From NCBI RefSeq assembly GCF_000026985.1, contig NC_017390.1, positions 691,995-742,511 on the forward strand: DNA of 50,517 bases, given 5' to 3'. Both the position numbers and the translations under genes were made by a program. This DNA is from Erwinia pyrifoliae DSM 12163. GTDB taxonomy: Bacteria; Pseudomonadota; Gammaproteobacteria; Enterobacterales; Enterobacteriaceae. The notes below the pieces were generated by a model. It saw only the letters and a list, made by a program, of their open reading frames with translations. It did no database searches and was not told the DNA's origin. Each line of letters starts with the position of its first letter. Position 1 is the first letter of the stretch. Positions 8,363 to 38,804 of this stretch are shown here, piece after piece.

Positions 8363-9379
8363 GTGGCGAAACAGGTTAAGCAGCGCGCCACCCGAGCCGA
8401 TGTGGCGCAGGAGGCTGGCACGTCGGTGGCGGTGGTCAGTTACGTTGTCAACAACGGTCCGCGCCCGGTCGCTCCCGCAACGCGCGAAAGGGTACTGGCT
8501 GCGATCAAGAAAACCGGTTATCGGCCGAACAATGTCGCTCGGGCGCTGGCTTCAGGCACCACCAAAACCTACGGGCTGGTGGTGCCAAATATTGATAATG
8601 CGTTTGTTGCCTCTCTCGCTCATGAACTGCAACAGGAAGCGTTAGCCAACGATATGGTCATGCTGCTGGGCGATGCCGGCGACGATCGCAAACGCGAGCT
8701 GCAGCTGATCAATAACCTGTTGAGTCAGCAGATTAACGGGATCATTTATGTCAGCGTCGACCGCCATCCCTATATTGATGTTTTGCAAGCCAGCGGTACG
8801 CCATGCGTTATGCTCGACCGCGTCGATCCGGCTTTGCAGGTCAATGTGCTGCGCGTGGATGAGCGTGAAGCCGCGCGTCAGGTGACATCTCACCTGCTGA
8901 GTCATGGCTATCAGCAGGTGGGCATTATCTGCGGTCCGCTGGAAAGGCTTAACTCGCAGGACAGGCTGCATGGCTGGCGCGAGGCGCTGGCAGAATATGG
9001 CGTGCCGGAGCGCCCTGAGTGGATCTTCTCCACGCCTTATACCCGTCAGGGAGGCTATCAGGCGGCACAGCGAATGTTACAGGGCGGAACACTTCCGCGC
9101 GCGCTGTTTGCCACCAACGAGGCACAGGCCATTGGCTGTATTCGTGCCTTATCGGAGCACGGTATCAAGGTGCCGGATGACGTCGCGCTGGTGTGTTTTA
9201 ACGGAACTGACCAATCTGCTTATCACCTGCCGTCGCTGACGACCGCTCGTCAGCCGGTGCGTGAAATGGCAAAGGCTGCCATCAAAATGCTGGCGAACTG
9301 GAACGGAGAAACCGTGCTACGTGAGTTTTCTCATCAATTAGAAATTGGCGAGTCTTGCGGCTGCAAGCTGGTCAGATAA
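8363..9379 (+). CDS. LacI/GalR-family transcriptional regulator
   Basis: The N-terminus carries a helix-turn-helix (RATRADVAQEAGTSVAVVSY) and the hinge helix signature GYRPNNVARALASG, followed by a periplasmic-binding-protein-like sensor with GLVVPNIDNAFVA and CFNGTDQSAYHLPSLTT. The best start is GTG 8363, 7 bases after GGGGGG; a start further upstream would add a leader not seen in the family. The length of 338 residues is normal. It lies 81 bases after the transporter and 14 before the nucleoside hydrolase, so it probably represses this set until the substrate or a product is present. Confidence 0.9.
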   Translation: MAKQVKQRATRADVAQEAGTSVAVVSYVVNNGPRPVAPATRERVLAAIKKTGYRPNNVARALASGTTKTYGLVVPNIDNAFVASLAHELQQEALANDMVMLLGDAGDDRKRELQLINNLLSQQINGIIYVSVDRHPYIDVLQASGTPCVMLDRVDPALQVNVLRVDEREAARQVTSHLLSHGYQQVGIICGPLERLNSQDRLHGWREALAEYGVPERPEWIFSTPYTRQGGYQAAQRMLQGGTLPRALFATNEAQAIGCIRALSEHGIKVPDDVALVCFNGTDQSAYHLPSLTTARQPVREMAKAAIKMLANWNGETVLREFSHQLEIGESCGCKLVR

Positions 9380-9393
9380 AAAGATAACATCAG

Positions 9394-10380
9394 ATGAAAC
9401 GATTAATTATTGACTGCGATCCGGGGAATGGAATTGCAGGTGCCAACGTTGATGACGGGCTGGCTATCGCGTTGGCGCTGGCCGCGCCAGAGATTTCACT
9501 GGAACTGGTCACCACCGTAGCGGGGAATACCCCAAGCGAGATTGGTTACAGCGTGGCAAGAGATCTGATCGAGCGCGCAGGTCAATCGGTGCCGGTGATT
9601 AAAGGGGCGGATGCGGCGTTAATTGAACCCAGTGCACCGTGGCGTGGTGTCCTGGATTTGCGGGTGCACCAGCAGCAGTTGGCGCATCTTTGGCAGGGCG
9701 TACGCCAGCCACAAGTTTATTTACCGCCGCCGGAAGAAGCAGCCGATGCCATCGGACAACTGATTTGCGCCAATCCGGGTGAGATAACGCTGGTGGCAAT
9801 TGGTCCATTAACTAACGTTGCTCTGGCGCTGGAACGTTACCCGCAGATGGCTGATGCGGTGCAGAAAATTGCCATTATGGGCGGCGTATTTGCGCTGGAT
9901 GACTTTATCAAAGACACCAACTTTGGTATCGATCCTGAGGCGGCACACAAAGTGCTGACCAGCGGGGCGAACATCACGCTGGTGCCGATGGATGTCACCA
10001 GCCAAACGCGAATGACCCATCAGGATCTCGACCGTATTGCGCAAATAGACACGCCGCTGGCGCACTTTGTGACCGAGACGCTGCGCCCGTGGATCGATTA
10101 CTCCATGCAAACCCGACGTCTGGCGGGTTGCTGGATACATGATGCGCTGGTCGTCGCCTGGCTGCTCAACCAGCAGGTAGCGACCGCTGGTGACTATTTT
10201 GTCAATGTTGAACTGCGGGAAGGCATGACGCGCGGTAAATCATGGCGTTATCGCCACCCGCTGCGGCTTGATGTCGGTATTGGTCAGCCGCAGGGCAGCC
10301 CGGTGCAGGTATTGCAAACGGTTGATAACGCATTACTGCTGGCTATGTTGGAACAGTATCTGGCACAGCCATTGGGGTAA
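9394..10380 (+). CDS. Nucleoside hydrolase (IunH/Rih family)
   Basis: The 328-residue enzyme has the calcium-binding start of ribonucleoside hydrolases. The usual DxDPGxDDA is stretched here to DCDPGNGIAGANVDDG (D7, D9, D20, D21), with about seven extra residues between DPG and DD. Later family features are present: LVTTVAGNTP, LTNVALAL, KIAIMGG, DFIKDTNFGIDPEAA and IHDALVVAW. Members cleave the N-glycosidic bond of nucleosides to base plus ribose. The altered metal loop probably marks a subgroup with its own substrate preference. It is the last gene of the transporter-regulator-hydrolase set. Confidence 0.88.
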   Translation: MKRLIIDCDPGNGIAGANVDDGLAIALALAAPEISLELVTTVAGNTPSEIGYSVARDLIERAGQSVPVIKGADAALIEPSAPWRGVLDLRVHQQQLAHLWQGVRQPQVYLPPPEEAADAIGQLICANPGEITLVAIGPLTNVALALERYPQMADAVQKIAIMGGVFALDDFIKDTNFGIDPEAAHKVLTSGANITLVPMDVTSQTRMTHQDLDRIAQIDTPLAHFVTETLRPWIDYSMQTRRLAGCWIHDALVVAWLLNQQVATAGDYFVNVELREGMTRGKSWRYRHPLRLDVGIGQPQGSPVQVLQTVDNALLLAMLEQYLAQPLG

Positions 10381-10431: not shown

Positions 10432-11838
10432 TCATTTCATTGACCGCTGCCAGCGCCAGCGGTCAATGGCCAGCAGAACTGGCAGGCTCACGCCCATCAC
10501 CGGTAAACTCACCGCGACCAATACCGTCAGCACCAGCAGCATCAGACGAATGCCGGGAGTTAACTGCCGCCAGCATCCCAGCAGCGTAGCGAACGGGGAC
10601 GTTTCTCCCGCCTGCGGACGTCGTAACCACCACATGCGGTAGCCAATCACAATCATCAGGCACAGCCCGAGGCCAAACAGCGCCAGTACCAGCTGATTGG
10701 CTATGCCGAACAGTACGCCCATATGCGCATCCACCCCCCAGCGCGTCAGCCTGGCCAGCAGGCCAAATTGCGCGAACGTTACTTTATCAACAATCGTATT
10801 ATTCTGTGGATCCACCGCCACGCTGTCCACCTGGGTCGGCCAGCGGTGGTCTGTCTCGGTTACTGTCCAGGCCTTATCCGTACGATAAGCCGGGCGGATT
10901 TCCAGCTTCGCCGCATCAATGCCTGCTGCGCGCGCCGCATGCAGTACGCTATCGAACCGGGCTGGATTGATGGTAACCGCCTCGCCGCCGTGCATTATCA
11001 TGCTGTGGCCGTGGTGCCCGGCATGCTCGTCCATTGCCATATCCATCGCCGGGGCGGGTTGAAGTGAGGTATTTACCACCGGCGTCATCCAGCCAAAATG
11101 GCTGCGCAACAGGGCGATGTTATCCCCGGCCCAGCGTGACCAGGTTAGCCCGGTGGCAGAGAAAAACACCATTCCGAGCAACAACGCCAGGCCAACAGCC
11201 GTGTGCCATCGGCGAAATCGCCCCAGGCGCCGTGCCGGCGGGGGTTGGGGAGTTGACGATTGACGGCGCGCGGCGCGGTTGCTTGCCCACAGCAGCGCCC
11301 CCCCGAATGCGGCAACCCACAACCAGCTGGCCGCCAGCTCACTGTAAATACGGCCGACATCGCCCAACAGCAAATTGCGGTGCAGGTAATCCAGCCAGGT
11401 ACGCAGGGGGAGTATGCCGCTGGTGCCGTACACCGTCATGACGCCGCGTACCTCCAGGGTTTTTGGATCGATAAATACTGCGCGTGTTTCCGAGGGAGCA
11501 AGATCGGCTCGGTAAAACATCACGCGGGTGGTTTCCCCCTGGTAGGGCGCGGGGCGCACGGCGGCAATCTGCGCGTCTGCGCCGATAAACTCACTGGCGC
11601 GAACGACCTGAGCGGAGAGCGGCTGGTCAGCACCAGATGATGAAATGAACAGCTGCCGTTGATAAAGCACCTTCTCCAGCTGCGGGGTGACAACGTACAG
11701 GGTGCCGGTGAACGCGGCGATAAAAATAAACGGGGCGATAAACAGCCCAATATCGAAATGCAGACGACGCAGCAGCGGTAGCAGGCTGCTGCGGGCAGAG
11801 GTGGCGTGCGCGGGCGCATGCCGGATTTGTTCTGACAT
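10432..11838 (-). CDS. PepSY-associated transmembrane protein
   Basis: The start MSEQIRH at 11838 has GGAAGAG just upstream and is preferred over the ATG four codons earlier; it gives 468 residues. The layout is typical of PepSY_TM proteins (PiuB-like): helix 1 (GLFIAPFIFIAAFTGTLYVV), a periplasmic PepSY region, further helices near SWLWVAAFGGALLWA and LALLLGMVFFSATGL, a His/Met-rich loop (MDMAMDEHAGHHGHSM) and two C-terminal helices. Such proteins are found next to iron and copper uptake genes, and some act as ferric-siderophore reductases. The His/Met loop suggests metal binding. A DUF2946 gene lies 82 bases upstream on the same strand. Confidence 0.85.
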   Translation of the reverse strand: MSEQIRHAPAHATSARSSLLPLLRRLHFDIGLFIAPFIFIAAFTGTLYVVTPQLEKVLYQRQLFISSSGADQPLSAQVVRASEFIGADAQIAAVRPAPYQGETTRVMFYRADLAPSETRAVFIDPKTLEVRGVMTVYGTSGILPLRTWLDYLHRNLLLGDVGRIYSELAASWLWVAAFGGALLWASNRAARRQSSTPQPPPARRLGRFRRWHTAVGLALLLGMVFFSATGLTWSRWAGDNIALLRSHFGWMTPVVNTSLQPAPAMDMAMDEHAGHHGHSMIMHGGEAVTINPARFDSVLHAARAAGIDAAKLEIRPAYRTDKAWTVTETDHRWPTQVDSVAVDPQNNTIVDKVTFAQFGLLARLTRWGVDAHMGVLFGIANQLVLALFGLGLCLMIVIGYRMWWLRRPQAGETSPFATLLGCWRQLTPGIRLMLLVLTVLVAVSLPVMGVSLPVLLAIDRWRWQRSMK

Positions 11839-11920
11839 AAACTCTTCCATCCGCCTGTTTACCAGGCATAAACCACGGGCTGCGGGGATTTCCCACAGTC
11901 AATATGTCACGGGATTAACG

Positions 11921-12361
11921 TCAAGCTCGGTAGCGGGGTGGGGCGCGTGGGTGGAAGAAGCCTGGGGTAAAAAGGGTCGGCGGCGGCGGGGATCGCGTCA
12001 CGTCCGGGATCCCCGCCGCCAGTAAGGCTGACCATAGCAGCAATGACGGCAGCAGATCGAGCGGCAGATGCACCAGCAGCAGGCAGTAGCCGCAGGCGCT
12101 GTCATCCATTACCGGCAGCACCGGGCGTTTGGTATTGTCGGCAGCTGAATCGGCTGCGGCCAGCGAACGATCGTCCGCTGATATATCCCACTCTGCCTCC
12201 ATCGCCATGCCCATGGCGTGATGCATCATCATGCTGTCGCCGCCGCGTTGCTGCGCCAGTGATTTTGAAATCACCGGAGCGATAAACAGCAGCAGCATGG
12301 CCAGCAGGGCAGAGCAGGCGGCAAAACGGCGATGTGTGACAGAGTGCAGGATCGTCAACAT
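11921..12361 (-). CDS. DUF2946 domain protein
   Basis: The 146-residue protein begins with an export/anchor helix (FAACSALLAMLLLFIAPVI), followed by a Met/His-rich stretch (GDSMMMHHAMGMAMEAEW) and the DUF2946 signature CGYCLLLVHLPL, then a hydrophobic segment and a Pro-rich tail. DUF2946 proteins are periplasmic or membrane proteins of unknown function commonly beside copper or TonB/PepSY genes. Here the gene precedes the PepSY membrane protein on the same strand, so both may serve metal handling in the envelope. Confidence 0.8.
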   Translation of the reverse strand: MLTILHSVTHRRFAACSALLAMLLLFIAPVISKSLAQQRGGDSMMMHHAMGMAMEAEWDISADDRSLAAADSAADNTKRPVLPVMDDSACGYCLLLVHLPLDLLPSLLLWSALLAAGIPDVTRSPPPPTLFTPGFFHPRAPPRYRA

Positions 12362-31999: not shown

Positions 32000-32482
32000 A
32001 TGGCTATTGATATGTATTTGAAAGTTGACGGTGTTACCGGTGAATCTAAAGATGCTAACCACACCGGCTGGATCGATGTGACTTCTTTCTCCTGGGGCGC
32101 TACCCAGCCGGGCAACATGTCCGTAGGCGGCGGCGGCGGTGCCGGTAAAGTGAACTTTAACGATCTGCACGTTGATGCAAAAATCGATAAAGCAGTTACC
32201 GCGCTGCTGAAAAACTGCGCCAGCGGTAAGCACGTCGGTAAAGTAGAAGTTTCCGTATGTAAAGCGGGCGGCACTCAGATTGAGTACACCCGTATTACTC
32301 TGGAAGACGTGCTGGTAACCCGCGTCGAGTTCTCGGGTGCAGGAAACGGGGAAACTTTGGGCGTAACCTACGCATTCCAGGCTGCCAAAGTGAAACAGCA
32401 GTACTGGGAGCAGAGCACCACCGGTGGTAAAGGCGCAGAAAGCAGCGCTGGCTGGAATATTAAAGAGAATAAAGAAGCGTAA
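32000..32482 (+). CDS. hcp: T6SS tail-tube protein Hcp (TssD)
   Basis: The 160-residue protein shows the Hcp pattern MAIDMYLKVDGVTGES, GWIDVTSFSWGATQPG and VEVSVCKAGGTQ, then LEDVLVTRVEFSG. Hcp forms stacked hexameric rings making the tube that is shot into target cells, and its lumen carries small effectors. It has a 270-base leader after the upstream gene and a strong terminator behind it, which points to separate, high-level expression. A Gly-rich loop (SVGGGGGAGK) is a common variant in enterobacteria. Confidence 0.97.
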   Translation: MAIDMYLKVDGVTGESKDANHTGWIDVTSFSWGATQPGNMSVGGGGGAGKVNFNDLHVDAKIDKAVTALLKNCASGKHVGKVEVSVCKAGGTQIEYTRITLEDVLVTRVEFSGAGNGETLGVTYAFQAAKVKQQYWEQSTTGGKGAESSAGWNIKENKEA

Positions 32483-32536: not shown

Positions 32537-32980
32537 ATGACTTCTGCGACAATAAGTATTGTTAGAATGTGGGAAACATCATTATCAACAATAAGTAAAT
32601 TTTCTATTTCCGGAACAGATATTTCAGGGTTCATGCTGGAAAGACCGGGGCCTGATACTATAATATCTAATTTAAGGTTGAGGATTCCAGAAGGAATATA
32701 TAATTTAAAGTGGCATAATAGCGGGAAACACTCAATTGCTAAACATAATCCTGTTCCGCTTTTGTATAATGCCACTGTTCCTGTTTCGAGATATATATTA
32801 ATCCACAATGGAAATGTAGCATCTGATAGTGATGGTTGTTTATTAATTGGTTCCGTGAAAACTCAGAATAGCGTACTTTCCAGTGTTCCTAAATTACTTG
32901 AGTTGAAAGAGTTTTTGCAAAGAGTTGGTATTGAAAACGTCAAGGTAAGAATTACCAGTTGTTATTCATTATGTCGATAG
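32537..32980 (+). CDS. DUF5675 protein, probable T6SS effector
   Basis: The 147-residue protein fits DUF5675: LSTISKFSISGTDISGFMLE, then LRIPEGIYNLKWHNS, then ILIHNGNVASDSDGCLLIGS. The pair H90 and C101 in IHNGN...DSDGC resembles the His/Cys catalytic signature of L,D-transpeptidase-like enzymes, although the whole YkuD motif is not present. It has no signal peptide, starts just after the hcp terminator, is much more AT-rich than its neighbours, and is followed by exported proteins. This suits an Hcp-delivered effector acting on the cell wall. Effector status and activity are inference; the domain assignment is by recognition. TTG or GTG alternatives for the start are less likely. Confidence 0.65.
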   Translation: MTSATISIVRMWETSLSTISKFSISGTDISGFMLERPGPDTIISNLRLRIPEGIYNLKWHNSGKHSIAKHNPVPLLYNATVPVSRYILIHNGNVASDSDGCLLIGSVKTQNSVLSSVPKLLELKEFLQRVGIENVKVRITSCYSLCR

Positions 32981-33004
32981 ATCAAAAACTTCAAAGAGGT
33001 AGTG

Positions 33005-33742
33005 ATGTTAAAGTTGAAAAAGTATATTTTTTTGTTGATTGTTACTTTACTTTCTTCATTCGCAGTTTACGCCAACGATAGCGAAGCCAATGAAAAAAAT
33101 ATCGAAGGCATATTACAGGCATATTGGTTTCCTGCTGTAAATGATGACGGTTCAGAGGGTAAGTCTGAACTGATGCTGCGCTTCCTGGATGGCAGTAGCC
33201 AGACATCTCCCAAAGTGATTGATCTGTTCAAAACAAAAAACAGAGAAGGTTTACCAGAGAACAGCAATTTTACGGATGCCAGAACTATTGCCTTAATTAA
33301 AAAAGAGTTTATCGCTATCCCCGATAACTTCTTTCGTTTCAAAGAGGGGCATATTGAACAGGCTGGTTCATTAACCCTGAGCAGCGAGTTGGAAAATGTG
33401 GAGTGCGACAACAAAAATTATTATGCGCACTTTATCTCTTTTAAGGCGACGGCCAGCGGTCAGCATAACGCAGAGGATATTGCCAGGCGCAGTGGTTGTG
33501 GGGGTTATCCCTGGTTACAACGCTTTTCCAAAAATCTTAATAAAGAAACGGTGACATTTAAATCACAGCCAGATGCAAAAAGTAAAGTTGTCTATACCGT
33601 TACCACTGACGATACTGTAGTAAAGATAAAGAGTATCAACGCTGAGTGGATCTATGCGGCCATTTATGATGAATCTAAGCCAGAGATGTCCGGCAATATT
33701 CGCGGCTATATTTTAAAGTCCGATCTCTCTTTGCTGAATTAG
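33005..33742 (+). CDS. Exported protein with SH3-like C-terminus, probable immunity
   Basis: From ATG 33005, behind AAAGAGGTAG, the 245-residue protein has a clear signal peptide (YIFLLIVTLLSSFAVYA) and would act in the periplasm. The middle is not recognised. The last 65 residues (VTFKSQPDAKSKVVYTVTTD, then WIYAAIYDES, then GYILKSDLSLLN) look like a bacterial SH3 domain with the usual WxxV/GYI core. It is AT-rich and lies 24 bases after the DUF5675 gene. A periplasmic partner directly after a candidate wall-active effector is the usual place for an immunity protein. That role is inferred from position and export signal. Confidence 0.6.
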   Translation: MLKLKKYIFLLIVTLLSSFAVYANDSEANEKNIEGILQAYWFPAVNDDGSEGKSELMLRFLDGSSQTSPKVIDLFKTKNREGLPENSNFTDARTIALIKKEFIAIPDNFFRFKEGHIEQAGSLTLSSELENVECDNKNYYAHFISFKATASGQHNAEDIARRSGCGGYPWLQRFSKNLNKETVTFKSQPDAKSKVVYTVTTDDTVVKIKSINAEWIYAAIYDESKPEMSGNIRGYILKSDLSLLN

Positions 33743-33810
33743 AGTTAGTCCAACCTTTGTTTATAACATATCAATAGCTATGTGAGAAACCAGCGCAGAT
33801 AAGGGACGTT

Positions 33811-34203
33811 ATAAATAAATTATTATCACTCTCTTTACTGATCCTTGCCCTACAGGCAAGTACCGCTTATGCCATCGATGATTGCTCTAAGGGCAAGATT
33901 GATCCTAAGGTTTATGCCTGTGCAGACAAAAACAGAATTGAGGCCGAGGCTGATTTAAACAAAGAATACGCAGCAACCAAAAGTCGCGTTGAGTATTACT
34001 TAAAAAGTGACCAGGCTGAAAAGAAAAGATATCTTGATAAGTTACTGGCAGCGCAGAGAGCCTGGCTTAAATACCGTGAGTATGATTGTCAGTTAGCAGG
34101 TTGCGCGGCGGATGAAGGATCAAATCCAAGTATTACTTTCACTAATGTTTGTATCACTAATCGTAATATTGAAAGAATAAAACGATTGAAGAAGATTCCT
34201 TAA
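33811..34203 (+). pseudogene. LprI-like exported protein gene with ATA in place of ATG
   Basis: A 130-codon frame, intact to its TAA, begins at 33811 with ATA-AAT-AAA (INKLLSLSLLILALQ). It continues with a signal peptide ending TAYA, then IDDCSKGKIDP, VYACADKNRIEAEADLNKEY and AAQRAWLKYREYDCQLAGC, the LprI/DUF1311 pattern. The same 5' block occurs at 36767 with ATG and differs in the first 24 bases only at this G to A. No ATG, GTG or TTG is available before the signal peptide ends. It is probably silent, or very weakly made from ATA. Confidence 0.75.
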
Positions 34204-34373
34204 TTGCTATCTGAGTGTTTTATTGAGCTTTTAGTTGTGATAAATACAGATATATACGGTGTTGTATGGGTTGAAGTGCTAATATTAGCCATCCATATAA
34301 CACCGTAGTAGAAACTGAAAGCAGCCCGTTTAATAATCCATTAAAAATTTGAAACTCAATACATGGACCTGGT

Positions 34374-35156
34374 GTGAGAATATTTACTGTCCTTATCAGT
34401 TTTATGGTAACTGCAACTTATGCGCTTAATGCCAGTGCTCTAAATTTAGAAAATACACTTTGGCAAGTTAAAAAAGTACATCCAGACGTCGATTCTGGCA
34501 GGCGAATGATTTACGGTGAAAACGATCCTCGTCTTGTAGGTCGTTTTCTCCAGCTCAATAAAAATAATATAGAGAGCGATCTGCCTGACTTTTTTGACTG
34601 CAAAATGCCTGATTATCAAAAGCAAAAATTAGCGCTTGATGAATGGGTAAAAAGAGCAACCGGGATAGCTGAAACAACCGGTGCCAAAGCCTGGCGTTTA
34701 AATGTCAGAGGCAGTGATATTGTCACCACCTTTACTGTGCATTGCCAGACAGGTATGTTTGACGGAGGTGGCTATGGGGAATATGGGGCAATGATAGCCC
34801 AGCTTTCACCCGCAGAGATTATTATTAACTGGGGTGAGACAACCCTTGTTGAACTTAATCCGGTTAATAAAAATGATATAAAACCCTCGTTTGATTGCGG
34901 CAAAGCACAAGCGGAAAGTGAAAAGGCCATCTGTGCTGACTATCGTCTTTCTTCTCTGGATAAGAGCGTATTTGATGCCTGGCGTGTTGCTAAAGCACTG
35001 GCTAAAGATGTCGCTAACACAGAGCTGTTAGCTACCGTCGTTGCCAGTCAGAAAGCCTGGCTGATGAACAGAAACCAGTGTGGATCTGATCCTCAGTGCC
35101 TGGCTAAAAGTATGACAGAGCGTATGGAAAAATTAGCAGAAACTCAAAATGAGTAG
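34374..35156 (+). CDS. Exported protein with LprI-like C-terminal domain
   Basis: A GTG at 34374 with GGACCTGG upstream starts a 260-residue protein with a signal peptide (RIFTVLISFMVTATYALNASA). Residues about 24-170 are an unrecognised domain beginning LNLENTLWQVKKVH. Residues about 174-255 are an LprI-type domain (SFDCGKAQAESEKAICADYR, then LATVVASQKAWLMNRNQCG) with four cysteines likely to form disulfides. LprI of Mycobacterium inhibits lysozyme, so these proteins may block wall hydrolases. It stands in the islet behind the DUF5675 effector with several related genes. It is the only intact long member; function as immunity is inferred. Confidence 0.65.
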   Translation: MRIFTVLISFMVTATYALNASALNLENTLWQVKKVHPDVDSGRRMIYGENDPRLVGRFLQLNKNNIESDLPDFFDCKMPDYQKQKLALDEWVKRATGIAETTGAKAWRLNVRGSDIVTTFTVHCQTGMFDGGGYGEYGAMIAQLSPAEIIINWGETTLVELNPVNKNDIKPSFDCGKAQAESEKAICADYRLSSLDKSVFDAWRVAKALAKDVANTELLATVVASQKAWLMNRNQCGSDPQCLAKSMTERMEKLAETQNE

Positions 35157-35176
35157 CGATCGACTATTACAGCGCA

Positions 35177-35224
35177 GATAAGGAATACAATGAATAAGCC
35201 AATTTTAGAAAGAAGGTATTCTTT
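35177..35224 (+). repeat. Orphan copy of the LprI-gene 5' module
   Basis: GATAAGGAATACAATGAATA at 35177 onward matches the ribosome-binding and start region of the LprI-like genes at 33811, 36232 and 36767, but here it leads into an unrelated short frame of 12 codons and then the next pseudogene. The 7 bases before it (AGCGCAG) are shared with the copy at 33791-33797. Confidence 0.6.
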
Positions 35225-36022
35225 ATGAGATTAAATATTCTTTTACTTTTAATTAGTGGGCCATTTTCTCTATTTCAGGCATACGCTCGTAATGATTCCT
35301 CACTAAACCTCAAAGGTGACTGGGAGGTGAAAAATCTCTATAAAAACACAAATATATCAAGACGTCCTGATCTTATCCCTGGAGACCCTAATTTAGTTGG
35401 GCGAACCGTGAATTTTAAGGACAGCCATTATTAATGGCGGGGTCGTTATACAGGGGTGCCAGTTTCCAACATTCACTAAAAAATCACCGCTACCACTCGA
35501 TTCACTTGTAGCTTTAACTGCTGGTGAAGAACCAAACGATAAAGCAGCTAAAGAGTATGACTTACCCTTAGCTGGAAATACTAAGGTGACACCTTACTTA
35601 ATCTCATGCAAGAGCGGTTTTTTGGGACCTAGGGGACAAGAAATTGGCAACTGGCTGATAAAATATGATGATGATAAGATCCTGACAAACTGGTTTAATC
35701 AAACCTATCTATTACTTGAAAAGTTACCGGCGAAAGTCACTCCTACACCATCATTTGATTGTAAAAAGCCACATCAAAAACTGAGAAAGCAATCTGCCCT
35801 GATTATGAACTCTCCTCCTGGGATAGAAGTGTTACCCTGGCGTACAGTATCTCTGAACAATATATAAAGGGTATCGGTATTAACGTGAAAAAGGAGCTGG
35901 AAGCGTTGAAGGTTTCGCAACGTAATTGGTTGAAGGAACGCAACTCCTGTGGTGATAACACTCAATGCATCTCGGATAAAATGCAGAATCGTGTCTCTGT
36001 CCTTGTTGAGGCGGTAAAGTAA
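35225..36022 (+). pseudogene. Long LprI-like paralogue broken by two frameshifts
   Basis: The frame from 35225 starts MRLNILLLLISGPFSLF and continues LNLKGDWEVKN and GDPNLVGRTVNF, a clear paralogue of the gene at 34374 (LNLENTLWQVKK, NDPRLVGRFLQL). It stops at 35434. The homology goes on in another frame (IGNWLIKYDDDKILTNWFNQ, then TPSFDC) and, after the A-run at 35762-35766, back in the first frame (KTEKAICPDYELSSWDRS, then VSQRNWLKERNSCGDN) to TAA at 36020. One base is missing near TGTAAAAAGCC. The protein would have been about 265 residues. Confidence 0.8.
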
Positions 36023-36231
36023 GTTGATCTGTTACCACGCTATGGAGTGATAATATATTCATTCCATATTCAATAAAACGTGGTGCTTAATTATTTAACA
36101 ATGAATTACCTGATACCAGGTAACTATGTTGTTTATATTTATTGCTATTCCTTATCAGCTTTTATCAATATCTGAATGGCTATCCAGGCCACAATATGTA
36201 ACTAAATAGATAACCCCTGATAAGGAAAACG

Positions 36232-36633
36232 ATGAATAGGCTATTATCACTTTCTCTTCTGCTCGCAGGGCTACAGATAAGCTGCTCCGCTTATGCAATC
36301 GACGATTGTGCAAAGGAAACCAGCGATCCGGCTGTTTTTACCTGTGCGGAAAAAAATAAAGACACAGCCGAAAAGAACCTTAATCATGAGTACCTCGCGG
36401 CGAAGACACGCATCGATGATCTGTTTTCTCATGAGGCTGATGTAAAAAAAGAATACCTCACTACTTTTATTGAGTCTCAGCGGGGGTGGCTGAAATATCG
36501 CGATGGGCAATGTAAGTTATTTGCACACATTGCTGACAAAAACAGTAATCCTTATATTGTATTCACTAATAATTGCATTGCTGAATTAGATGAAAACAGA
36601 AGCAAGCAGTTAAAAGAAATACCATACGATTGA
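36232..36633 (+). CDS. Short LprI-like exported protein, intact copy
   Basis: The 133-residue protein has the signal peptide NRLLSLSLLLAGLQISCSAYA and the LprI pattern DDCAKETSDPAVFTCAEKNK, EYLAAKTRIDDLF and SQRGWLKYRDGQC, with cysteine pairs expected in a periplasmic protein. GATAAGGAAAACG precedes the ATG. It is the intact counterpart of the ATA-started copy at 33811 and of the stub at 36767, so gene duplication is evident. A hairpin with a weak T-rich tail follows 22 bases after the stop. Confidence 0.75.
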   Translation: MNRLLSLSLLLAGLQISCSAYAIDDCAKETSDPAVFTCAEKNKDTAEKNLNHEYLAAKTRIDDLFSHEADVKKEYLTTFIESQRGWLKYRDGQCKLFAHIADKNSNPYIVFTNNCIAELDENRSKQLKEIPYD

Positions 36634-36655
36634 ATTTAGCTGTTTGCATCAAAAA

Positions 36656-36690
36656 AATGCACCCTGCTTTTTACGGTGCATTGTATTTAA
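36656..36690 (+). terminator. Candidate terminator after the short LprI-like gene
   Basis: AATGCACC (36656-36663) and GGTGCATT (36675-36682) pair with an 11-base loop, followed by GTATTTAA. The T-run is poor, so strength is uncertain. Confidence 0.5.
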
Positions 36691-36766
36691 GGTTGCATAT
36701 AACTAATAATTGCAAATGGTGAAAGCAAGCTGGTTATCTCATAAGTCACCATCGATAAGGAAAACC

Positions 36767-36922
36767 ATGAATAAATTATTATCACTCTCTCTTTTAATTA
36801 TGCGCTCCAGCTGGCAGTCTGCGTTAAGCGTATCAGCAGTAGTTAAAACGATCGCCACCTACGCAGCACCCCAAACCCAGCGCCTAAACCCCGCCGCTTT
36901 TCCCCAGAGGGGCGCAGTTTAA
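36767..36922 (+). pseudogene. Truncated LprI-like gene stub
   Basis: GATAAGGAAAACC and ATGAATAAATTATTATCACT repeat the start of the short LprI-like genes. After MNKLLSLSLLIM the similarity ends and the frame runs into unrelated, basic sequence until 36922, just before tagH. It is a 5' fragment left after deletion, possibly by recombination with a neighbouring copy. Confidence 0.65.
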
Positions 36923-36983: not shown

Positions 36984-38804
36984 ATGCGATTTACAATTAT
37001 AACGAGCAAACAGGGCCAGCAGCCGCCGCAGGGCAGCTGCGACTTTCTGCCGCCCGGCGGCACCATTGGTCGTGGTGCTGATAACAACCTGGTGCTGCCG
37101 GATGATGACCGCACCATTTCACGCCTGCAGGCTATCGTGCATATCAGCGCCACGGGCGAGTGCCATATCACCAATCGTGGCAACGTGACGCGCGTCCACC
37201 TGAATGATATTCCGCTGGAGCGTGGCCGCCAGGTCGAGCTGCAGGATGGCGATATTATCGGCATTGACGACTATCGCCTGCAGGTCAGCGAACTGAGCGC
37301 AGGCGCGCAGCCGCTAAGCCAGCCGGTGCCAGCGCCCGCAGCGCCGCGCCCGCAGCCGGTCGCCCCGGCGGCAGCCGCTGCGCCAGCTGCTATCCCCAGC
37401 GAGATCTGGGACAGCCTGGCGCAGGAGTTCTCGATCTCCGATAACCTCTCCAGCCGCAGCAAAGCCAAACCGCAAAGCCAGGCTAACCCGCTGACCGCCC
37501 CGGCCGCCGCCGAGCGTAATCCGGCCGATCCGCTGGCGCAGCTGGCGCAGAACAGCGATCCGCTAAACCTCGAACGCCGCGATCGCACCCCCGACCGCCT
37601 GTTTAACCAGGATCCGCTGTTTAAACAGGACAGCATCTTTGATGACAGCACCCCCAGTACGCTGTTCCAGCCGCCGGGGGCAAAAAGCAGCGTTACGCAG
37701 GGCGCACGTCAGGATGAGCAGGACCCGCTGGCGCTGTTCGGCGCAGGCGCAGCGCCACAGGTCGATCGCGACGACCCGCTCGGCCTGATGATGGGCAGCG
37801 CCGTGCCGCTGACGCCGCCAGAGGATAAGCCGCAGCAGACCTCAGAGCAGCCGATCATTCCGCTAACGCCAGAACCCGTGCCGCCTGTCACCGGGGAAAA
37901 AACATCATCTTCGGCGGATGAGCTGCCGGACAGCGATTTCAGCCTGTTTGGCGACGACAAAACGCAGCAGTCAGACGAGGCCAACTCGCCGCTGTTTGAC
38001 GTGCCGCCGCCTGGCCCGGCCGCCGCTCAGCCTACGGCGTCCTCCGCCAGCGGTGACTACGGCGGTATTACGCTGCCGACCCCTCAGGCGCGCGCGCGTA
38101 GCAGCACTCCACCACCGAAAGGTCGGCTGAGTATCGACCCGGTGGCCAACAGCACGGCGCACAGCAGCGGCAGCAGCGGTGAAGTGCTGGACGGCGATCT
38201 GATGGCGGCGCTGGTCGGCGGTATGGGCCTGCAGGATCTGCAACCCACACCGCGCTTTGACCAGCACGCGATGCAGGAGCTGGGGCAGATGCTCAGCATG
38301 TTCTCGCAGGGCACGGTGGCGCTGCTCTCTTCGCGTTCGATCCTTAAGCGCGGCGTAAAAGCCGAAATGACGGTGATCCTCGACGAGGCCAATAACCCGT
38401 TTAAGCTGCTGCCGTCCGGCAAATCGGTACTGATGCAGATGTTTGGCAGCCGCATGCCGGGCTTTATGCCGCCAAAACAGTCGGTGCGCGATGCGCTGGT
38501 CGATTTGCAGGCGCACCAGCTGGGGATGATCGCCGGCATCCGTGCGCTGATTGCCTCGATGCTGCAATCATTTAATCCCCAGCAGCTGGAGGAGGAAGCG
38601 CGCCAGGAAGGTGCCATCTCGCGCCTGTCGCTGCCGGGCAGCCGCAAAGCCGCGCTGTGGGACCACTTCAGCAAACGCTATAGCGAAACCGCCGGCGAGA
38701 TTGAAGACGACTTCCATACCCTGTTTGGTGAAGCCTTCCTCCATGCTTACGATATGGAAGTCAACCAGTACAAAGACTCACAGATCAGATCGGAAGAAAG
38801 ATGA
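36984..38804 (+). CDS. tagH: T6SS FHA-domain protein TagH
   Basis: The 606-residue protein has an N-terminal FHA domain (residues about 1-95; GGTIGRGADNNLVLPDDDRT, then ISRLQAIVHI), a long Pro/Ala/Gln-rich disordered middle (about 105-405) and a conserved C-terminal domain (MQELGQMLSMFSQGTVALLS onward) typical of TagH/ImpI/VasC. FHA domains bind phosphothreonine, and in P. aeruginosa Fha1 phosphorylated by PpkA activates the system. The usual SRxH of the pocket reads SRLQ. Its stop overlaps the start of the phosphatase gene (ATGA). Confidence 0.93.
   Translation: MRFTIITSKQGQQPPQGSCDFLPPGGTIGRGADNNLVLPDDDRTISRLQAIVHISATGECHITNRGNVTRVHLNDIPLERGRQVELQDGDIIGIDDYRLQVSELSAGAQPLSQPVPAPAAPRPQPVAPAAAAAPAAIPSEIWDSLAQEFSISDNLSSRSKAKPQSQANPLTAPAAAERNPADPLAQLAQNSDPLNLERRDRTPDRLFNQDPLFKQDSIFDDSTPSTLFQPPGAKSSVTQGARQDEQDPLALFGAGAAPQVDRDDPLGLMMGSAVPLTPPEDKPQQTSEQPIIPLTPEPVPPVTGEKTSSSADELPDSDFSLFGDDKTQQSDEANSPLFDVPPPGPAAAQPTASSASGDYGGITLPTPQARARSSTPPPKGRLSIDPVANSTAHSSGSSGEVLDGDLMAALVGGMGLQDLQPTPRFDQHAMQELGQMLSMFSQGTVALLSSRSILKRGVKAEMTVILDEANNPFKLLPSGKSVLMQMFGSRMPGFMPPKQSVRDALVDLQAHQLGMIAGIRALIASMLQSFNPQQLEEEARQEGAISRLSLPGSRKAALWDHFSKRYSETAGEIEDDFHTLFGEAFLHAYDMEVNQYKDSQIRSEER

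What the first reader, a model, noticed from the sequence alone, without database searches (positions are those of the whole stretch)
33811..36922. Decaying tandem family of LprI-like exported proteins inside the T6SS locus
Five related genes or fragments lie between the effector and tagH: a short copy with an ATA start, a long intact copy, a long copy with two frameshifts, a short intact copy and a stub. They share a signal peptide start and the LprI cysteine pattern. LprI is known as a lysozyme inhibitor, so an array of periplasmic inhibitors next to a wall-active effector would be an immunity reservoir that expands by duplication and then decays. This combination is, to my knowledge, not described.
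Basis: partly seen in the sequence, partly recalled or inferred. Interest (0 to 1): 0.78.

Follow-up and report, generated by a model that had tools for sequence, protein, structure and literature searches.

The report
Leftover immunity genes behind hcp
A plant-associated bacterium keeps, beside one current cell-wall weapon and its antidote, a row of partly decayed antidote genes that match weapons found in its relatives but not found in itself; rows of this kind are already known, and the row does not look like copies of one gene.

Summary
The islet is real and lies between hcp and tagH of T6SS-1 of Erwinia pyrifoliae DSM 12163T (identified by exact replicon sizes). It is best read as an array of mostly orphan T6SS immunity genes, not a tandem LprI family serving the neighbouring DUF5675 gene. 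DUF5675 has an L,D-transpeptidase-like fold in the model and an immunity-type partner (33002-33742), paired likewise in the 2 other genus genomes found to hold it. LprI genes belong to lysozyme-like effectors: 12 of 44 LprI ORFs in 33 fetched islands lie directly behind one, and 29 of 30 effector loci in a family-wide sample have an LprI match just downstream. No pesticin-type effector was found in this genome. A and D are not sisters (AU p 0.0013), which speaks against local duplication and for module displacement as described in Vibrio cholerae. The last 'stub' is the leader of a deleted Tai4-type gene. A (ATA start) and C (frame changes) are decayed. Least ordinary: the ribosome-site-plus-signal-peptide leader is shared between unrelated immunity families, while near-identical mature domains carry different leaders, suggesting recombination at leaders. 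LprI genes in such hcp islands are in print; this is a new member of a known kind.

The parts
32000..32482 (+). hcp (T6SS-1 tube protein), left border of the island
   Evidence: Pfam T6SS_HCP 127.3 bits
32537..32980 (+). DUF5675 protein: probable current effector, L,D-transpeptidase-like fold in the model
33002..33742 (+). exported partner of DUF5675, probable cognate immunity protein
   Evidence: homologue 18-19 nt behind DUF5675 in 2 of 2 other genus genomes found to hold DUF5675
33785..33837 (+). leader copy 1 (ribosome site + start of signal peptide), of A
   Evidence: the repeat finder D1; leader match to Tai4-type genes of G016 and G009
33811..34203 (+). A: short LprI gene, ATA in place of a start codon; orphan
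   Evidence: PF07007 47.8 bits; clade with four Pantoea genes, one of them directly behind a pesticin-type effector
34374..35156 (+). B: open long LprI-like gene (N-terminal beta-rich part + C-terminal helical LprI-like part); orphan
   Evidence: relative directly behind a phage-lysozyme effector in G020
35170..35197 (+). remnant of a further leader copy upstream of C
   Evidence: the repeat finder D6; 35085-35199 aligns with G009, where a Tai4-type gene follows
35225..36022 (+). C: decayed long LprI-like gene, in pieces in different frames
   Evidence: pieces match the long type apart
36206..36258 (+). leader copy 2, of D
36232..36633 (+). D: open short LprI gene; orphan
   Evidence: PF07007 50.1 bits; 86% to G016; dN/dS 0.17 over 133 codons
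36741..36793 (+). leader copy 3, of the lost Tai4-type gene
36767..36922 (+). E: stub; leader of a lost Tai4-type gene running into DNA upstream of tagH, not LprI
36984..38804 (+). tagH, right border of the island
   Evidence: name from the finding, no family search run; homologue at the same border of the relatives' islands

Best explanation
The islet is an orphan-immunity array in the hcp island of T6SS-1. The current module is DUF5675 (an effector that by its fold should act on peptidoglycan peptide stems) with its immunity partner at 33002-33742. Behind it lie immunity genes of other effectors no longer present: A and D for peptidoglycan-binding, pesticin-type (T4-lysozyme-like) muramidases, B and C for a peptidoglycan-binding phage-lysozyme type, and E the leader of a lost Tai4-type amidase immunity gene. 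New effector-immunity modules enter behind hcp and older effectors are lost; the exported inhibitors stay, may protect against neighbours that still inject the old effectors, and decay when not selected. Shown: architecture, pairing in relatives, no pesticin-type effector found here, non-sister copies A and D, decay. Inferred: effector displacement as the route, inhibition, protection in life.
For: DUF5675 is followed by a 33002-type gene in 2 of 2 other genus genomes found to hold it (59 other genomes searched, 35 of them same genus). Of 44 LprI ORFs of 90 aa or more in 33 fetched hcp islands (window not counted; 7 loci that repeat others left out), 12 lie directly behind a lysozyme-like effector and 32 do not. 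With the effector profile, 33 of 295 family genomes matched; of the 30 loci given out, 29 have an LprI-profile match within about 210 nt downstream on the same strand, none upstream. No match to that profile here nor in G009, G016, G017, while the 3 genomes known to hold it rang. Of 3 PG_binding_1 hits in this genome, the two that I read are not such effectors; the third, in a 621-aa frame, was not read. A+D clade rejected, AU p 0.0013. Each of the three pieces of C scores higher against the long gene of G035 or G002 than against B (47.0 to 37.0, 65.5 to no hit, 39.7 to 35.8 bits). D is constrained, dN/dS 0.17. Printed precedent: V. cholerae immunity gene arrays by effector displacement (PMC5361080, passages).
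Against: No remnant of a displaced effector was seen in the islet outside the named genes, so displacement is inferred from relatives. A's best identity in the tree set is 51%, hardly above its 50% to D; the case rests on the tree, where A has a long branch, and an old duplication before these genera parted is not excluded. B and C were not tested by a tree. The long type follows a phage-lysozyme row in 1 of 2 cases (G020, not L082). Of 14 pesticin-class rows, 10 are followed by LprI, and an eleventh, split one too; L064, L079 and L082 are not. 'Pesticin' is a sub-threshold Pfam match in two of the three effectors scanned and no match in the third, L047, which is 57% identical to one of the others. 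Three of the 29 family-wide LprI matches are weak, one locus is the Ewingella contig also used in the effector alignment, that alignment was made from effectors beside LprI genes, and I did not check which of the 30 loci lie in T6SS clusters.
Confidence: 0.82

Rival explanations
1. Tandem duplication: one LprI gene was copied in place and the copies decayed.
For: Neighbouring elements; A and D 50% identical, about as much as A to any row of the tree (51%), with a shared leader; B and C both long-type.
Against: A+D as one clade rejected (lnL 30.3 lower, AU p 0.0013); A groups with Pantoea genes, D with G016 and other Erwinia. C's three pieces score higher against genes of other genomes than against B. 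E is not LprI. The leader is shared with Tai4-type genes too, so it does not mark LprI duplicates.
Confidence: 0.08
2. The LprI genes are immunity proteins for the neighbouring DUF5675 effector.
For: Neighbourhood only.
Against: DUF5675 has its own partner in both other genomes, and neither has an LprI ORF of 90 aa or more in its hcp island. The model has a transpeptidase-like, not a lysozyme fold. LprI follows lysozyme-like effectors elsewhere. The neighbourhood of the 57 wider DUF5675 homologues was not examined.
Confidence: 0.03
3. The LprI proteins guard against lysozymes of plants, insects or other hosts, and their place in the T6SS locus is secondary.
For: The family is named after a mycobacterial lysozyme inhibitor (as reported in PMC8867033, passages).
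Against: Tight pairing with lysozyme-like effectors in relatives. Not exclusive: an inhibitor could do both.
Confidence: 0.06
4. They serve this strain's own GH108 lysozyme-type effector in the vgrG island (genome C3 about 748950-749640).
For: A GH108 + PG_binding_3 ORF is present (L055:6950-7633), and a broken LprI gene lies about 2.3 kb downstream.
Against: The GH108 ORF is followed 6 nt on by an ORF with no Pfam match that begins like an exported protein (L055:7643-8356), the usual place of an immunity gene.
Confidence: 0.07

Closest known systems
Orphan immunity gene arrays of V. cholerae T6SS clusters (PMC5361080, passages read)
   Same: Immunity genes without effectors behind a current module; copies in one strain not each other's closest relatives; displacement model.
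   Different: Other immunity families; here at the hcp-tagH interval of Erwinia T6SS-1, with leaders shared across families and decayed members.
hcp island of Pantoea agglomerans C1 (PMC12472927, passages) and hcp/vgrG islands of Pantoea and Erwinia (PMC3235180, passages)
   Same: Same place between hcp and tagH; the first reports orphan immunity proteins of Tai4 and LprI type there; the second includes this very strain.
   Different: The passages read do not pair each LprI with an effector class, test duplication or describe leaders. In the second paper 'lysozyme inhibitor', 'DUF1311' and 'immunity' do not occur in the main text; its supplement was not read.
LprI / DUF1311 immunity beside wall-active T6SS effectors (Salmonella Dublin, PMC8867033, passages; WHIX effectors, PMC12135965, passages; Carobbi 2022 seen only as a title in reference lists, not held)
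   Same: Exported LprI protein next to a peptidoglycan-acting effector.
   Different: Here the LprI genes are orphans.
Tlde1a, T6SS L,D-transpeptidase effector (PMC9638812, passages)
   Different: 13-14% identity; the printed motif spacing is not met; activity untested.

Membership tests
LprI (PF07007), copies A and D | profile match above the curated cut-off | tested here: met
   47.8 and 50.1 bits against 22
LprI (PF07007), copy B | profile match above the curated cut-off | tested here: not met
   15.8 bits, stretch 175-252 only; called LprI-like, not a member
LprI (PF07007), stub E | profile match | tested here: not met
   no family; DNA points to a Tai4-type leader
LprI function | inhibits a lysozyme | not testable with these tools
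   needs bench work
T6SS orphan immunity array | immunity genes whose relatives sit in effector-immunity pairs elsewhere | tested here: met
   12 of 44 LprI ORFs directly behind lysozyme-like effectors; 29 of 30 family loci
T6SS orphan immunity array | matching effector absent from the genome | tested here: met
   for A and D: no match to the pesticin-type profile, 3 of 3 control genomes positive; for B and C only PG_binding_1 was searched, 3 hits, 2 read
T6SS orphan immunity array | copies not closest to each other | tested here: met
   A and D, AU p 0.0013; B and C by pairwise scores only
T6SS orphan immunity array | protects against incoming effectors | not testable with these tools
   needs competition assays
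L,D-transpeptidase-fold effector (DUF5675) | fold | tested here: met
L,D-transpeptidase-fold effector (DUF5675) | catalytic motif with the printed spacing | tested here: not met
   invariant H90 and C101 only 11 residues apart; it may work like one but is not filed as a member
Tai4 (PF16695), stub E | Tai4 domain | tested here: not met
   only the leader remains; in G016 an intact PF16695 gene (50.4 bits) stands at this place

The most novel reading that the evidence does not exclude
In these arrays the leader (ribosome site plus signal-peptide code) is a module of its own: it recombines between unrelated immunity families, so that a mature inhibitor domain can be put behind another, already working export leader. 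Evidence: leader matches between LprI and Tai4 genes, whose mature parts show no homology (hhalign probability 1.3); among 117 immunity genes, 14 cross-family pairs in leader windows against 3 and 2 in two body windows, while same-family pairs are fewer in leaders (55) than in bodies (188, 203). Of the 14, two join Tai4 to the stub E and two are only 17-20 nt long. The leader was found only in hcp islands, 6 of 6 matches in four genomes, though that search missed A's own copy. Copy B against its Ejp617 relative: 7 of 25 identical in the leader, 230 of 235 after it. Tai4-type genes of G009 and G017: 92.7% alike in mature DNA, 48% in the leader, if G017's start is read rightly. Fast change of signal peptides by itself could explain the last two, not the cross-family sharing.
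Probability: 0.5. Interest if true: 0.55.

Novelty: new member of a known kind. Interest (0 to 1): 0.4.

Why it matters
It gives cognate predictions that can be tested (short LprI with pesticin-type muramidases; the 33002 type with DUF5675), proposes a fold for DUF5675, and shows an array in the act of decay with marks of recombination. If leader exchange is real, it offers a simple route by which orphan immunity genes stay exported and expressed when they move.

Full report
Where it is. The window is G000:C3:691995-742511. Contig C3 has 4,026,286 bases and the assembly 4,072,827; the genome paper of E. pyrifoliae DSM 12163T gives a chromosome of 4,026,286 bp and plasmids of 35,901, 4,960, 3,070 and 2,610 bp (PMC2827408, passages), which sum to the same figure. 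[quoted passage not shown] The genes from DUF5675 to D have 34-43% G+C and E 49%, against 60-63% for tssC and tagH.

What is there. Hcp, DUF5675 and the 33002 gene precede five elements: A, B, C, D, E. A and D are LprI by Pfam; B is LprI-like in its C-terminal part only; C is broken by frame changes; E is a stub. A has ATA where its relative in G017 has ATG, but the G017 copy is itself frame-shifted, so A has decayed in both lines in different ways. Past constraint is visible: dN/dS 0.10 and 0.19 over pieces of 29 and 95 codons for A against G017, and 0.17 over 133 codons for D against G016; Hcp and TagH against G016 give 0.24 and 0.11.

E is not LprI. The window aligns with G016 from 36194 to 36793 and again from 36878 on; in G016 the gap holds an intact Tai4 gene. 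Likewise 35085-35199 aligns with G009, where the same leader heads a Tai4-type gene, while of B only the last 23 residues were matched there. The array therefore looks like a mosaic of pieces seen apart in relatives.

What the neighbours say. Of 37 genus genomes, this one included, 28 have an Hcp match and 36 an LprI match. I fetched hcp islands of 23 relatives; 15 of 23 hold an LprI ORF of 90 aa or more. Read by eye, many islands begin with an effector and its immunity gene and run on through immunity-type genes of several families up to tagH. Pairings by position: Tae4-Tai4 in 8 of 9 rows, glucosaminidase type with its 121-aa partner in 4 of 4, muramidase type with its partner in 5 of 6, an eCIS-core-like type with its partner in 4 of 4, DUF5675 with the 33002 type in 2 of 2, pesticin type with short LprI in 10 of 14, plus the split L046 effector followed by LprI. 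Several partner classes were named from such neighbours, so these rows are not independent. Rows without LprI: L064, nothing within 250 nt; L079 and L082, 32-35% matches. The phage-lysozyme class is followed by long LprI in G020 and by another family in L082, a 32% match. Pfam backs the effector classes, but the pesticin match lies just under its cut-off in two effectors (25.3 and 23.9 against 25.8 bits) and is absent in the third, L047, 57% identical to the first of them.

Wider test. With the pesticin-type profile, 33 of 295 family genomes matched at E 1e-30. Of 30 loci given out, 29 have an LprI-profile match downstream on the same strand and none upstream; 26 of 29 have E under 1e-6, three lie between 5e-5 and 1e-3, and one locus, L113, has none. 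One of the 30 is the Ewingella contig also in the effector alignment; whether the loci lie in T6SS clusters was not checked. This genome has no match, nor have G009, G016 and G017; G013, G020 and G005, whose effectors are in the alignment, do.

Duplication or displacement. In a tree of 40 short LprI proteins, D pairs with G016 (100/99) and A with four Pantoea genes (100/98), one of which, L071_6453, stands directly behind a pesticin-type effector. Holding A and D together costs 30.3 log units (AU p 0.0013). A has a long branch (0.73), and its best identity in the set, 51%, is hardly above its 50% to D, so an old split is what the tree shows, not closeness to one partner. C's pieces score higher against genes of G035 and G002 than against B. 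The V. cholerae paper uses the same argument against duplication (PMC5361080, passages).

The current pair. The DUF5675 model (pLDDT 92.7) matches L,D-transpeptidase-fold proteins in 28 of 29 rows shown, among them Tlde1a; for Pgp2, DpaA and 1zat this class is recalled, not in the title. H90, G92, N93, G100 and C101 are invariant in 46 sequences. The spacing of His and Cys differs from the motif printed for Tlde1a. A library search for DUF5675 listed two phage papers only, not read.

Leaders. A 53-nt leader recurs at A, D and E. In leader windows of 117 immunity genes there are 14 cross-family matches, against 3 and 2 in two body windows; 11 of the 14 involve this clade, two of those join Tai4 to the stub E, and two of the 14 are only 17-20 nt. 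The leader of D hits only hcp islands in four genomes, 6 of 6 matches, without ringing at A. In G016 the two Tai4 genes are 87.8% alike in mature DNA but 35% in the leader. At sites that tell the two types apart in G009 and G017, G016's Tai4b is b-type at 28 of the first 29 and a-type at 15 of the last 20, as after gene conversion; the control, G016's Tai4a, is itself b-type at 7 of 50, so exchange may have gone both ways.

Limits. G016, G009 and G017 are unnamed; I recall, but did not test, that they look like E. amylovora and close kin. No function was measured. Names such as 'immunity' rest on position, export signals read by eye and known families. Absence from print is not claimed for anything beyond the searches named.

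Noticed in passing
window 32537-32980: DUF5675 family protein modelled with an L,D-transpeptidase-like fold; Pfam lists the family as of unknown function.
   Followed up: yes
G000:C3:751966-752242 (L055 about 9967-10243): A further LprI gene in the vgrG island, broken, next to a transposase-like ORF on the other strand (L055:10271-11311, called so by eye).
   Followed up: partly
L055:7643-8356 and 11464-12211: Two copies, near-identical by eye, of the ORF behind the GH108 effector, the second split, on either side of the transposase-like ORF.
   Followed up: no
L043:7750-8118 and 8789-9157: Two Tai4 genes in G016 with different leaders and signs of gene conversion in the 3' part.
   Followed up: partly
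L037:9759 and 12014, L038:8122: A second case of a leader shared between unrelated immunity families (a 123-aa type and long LprI).
   Followed up: no
L045 and L063: Two hcp copies inside one island, each followed by a muramidase-type effector.
   Followed up: no
genus search, G001, G006, G007, G012, G014: LprI domain matches inside open frames of 409-523 aa, larger than the usual single-domain proteins.
   Followed up: no
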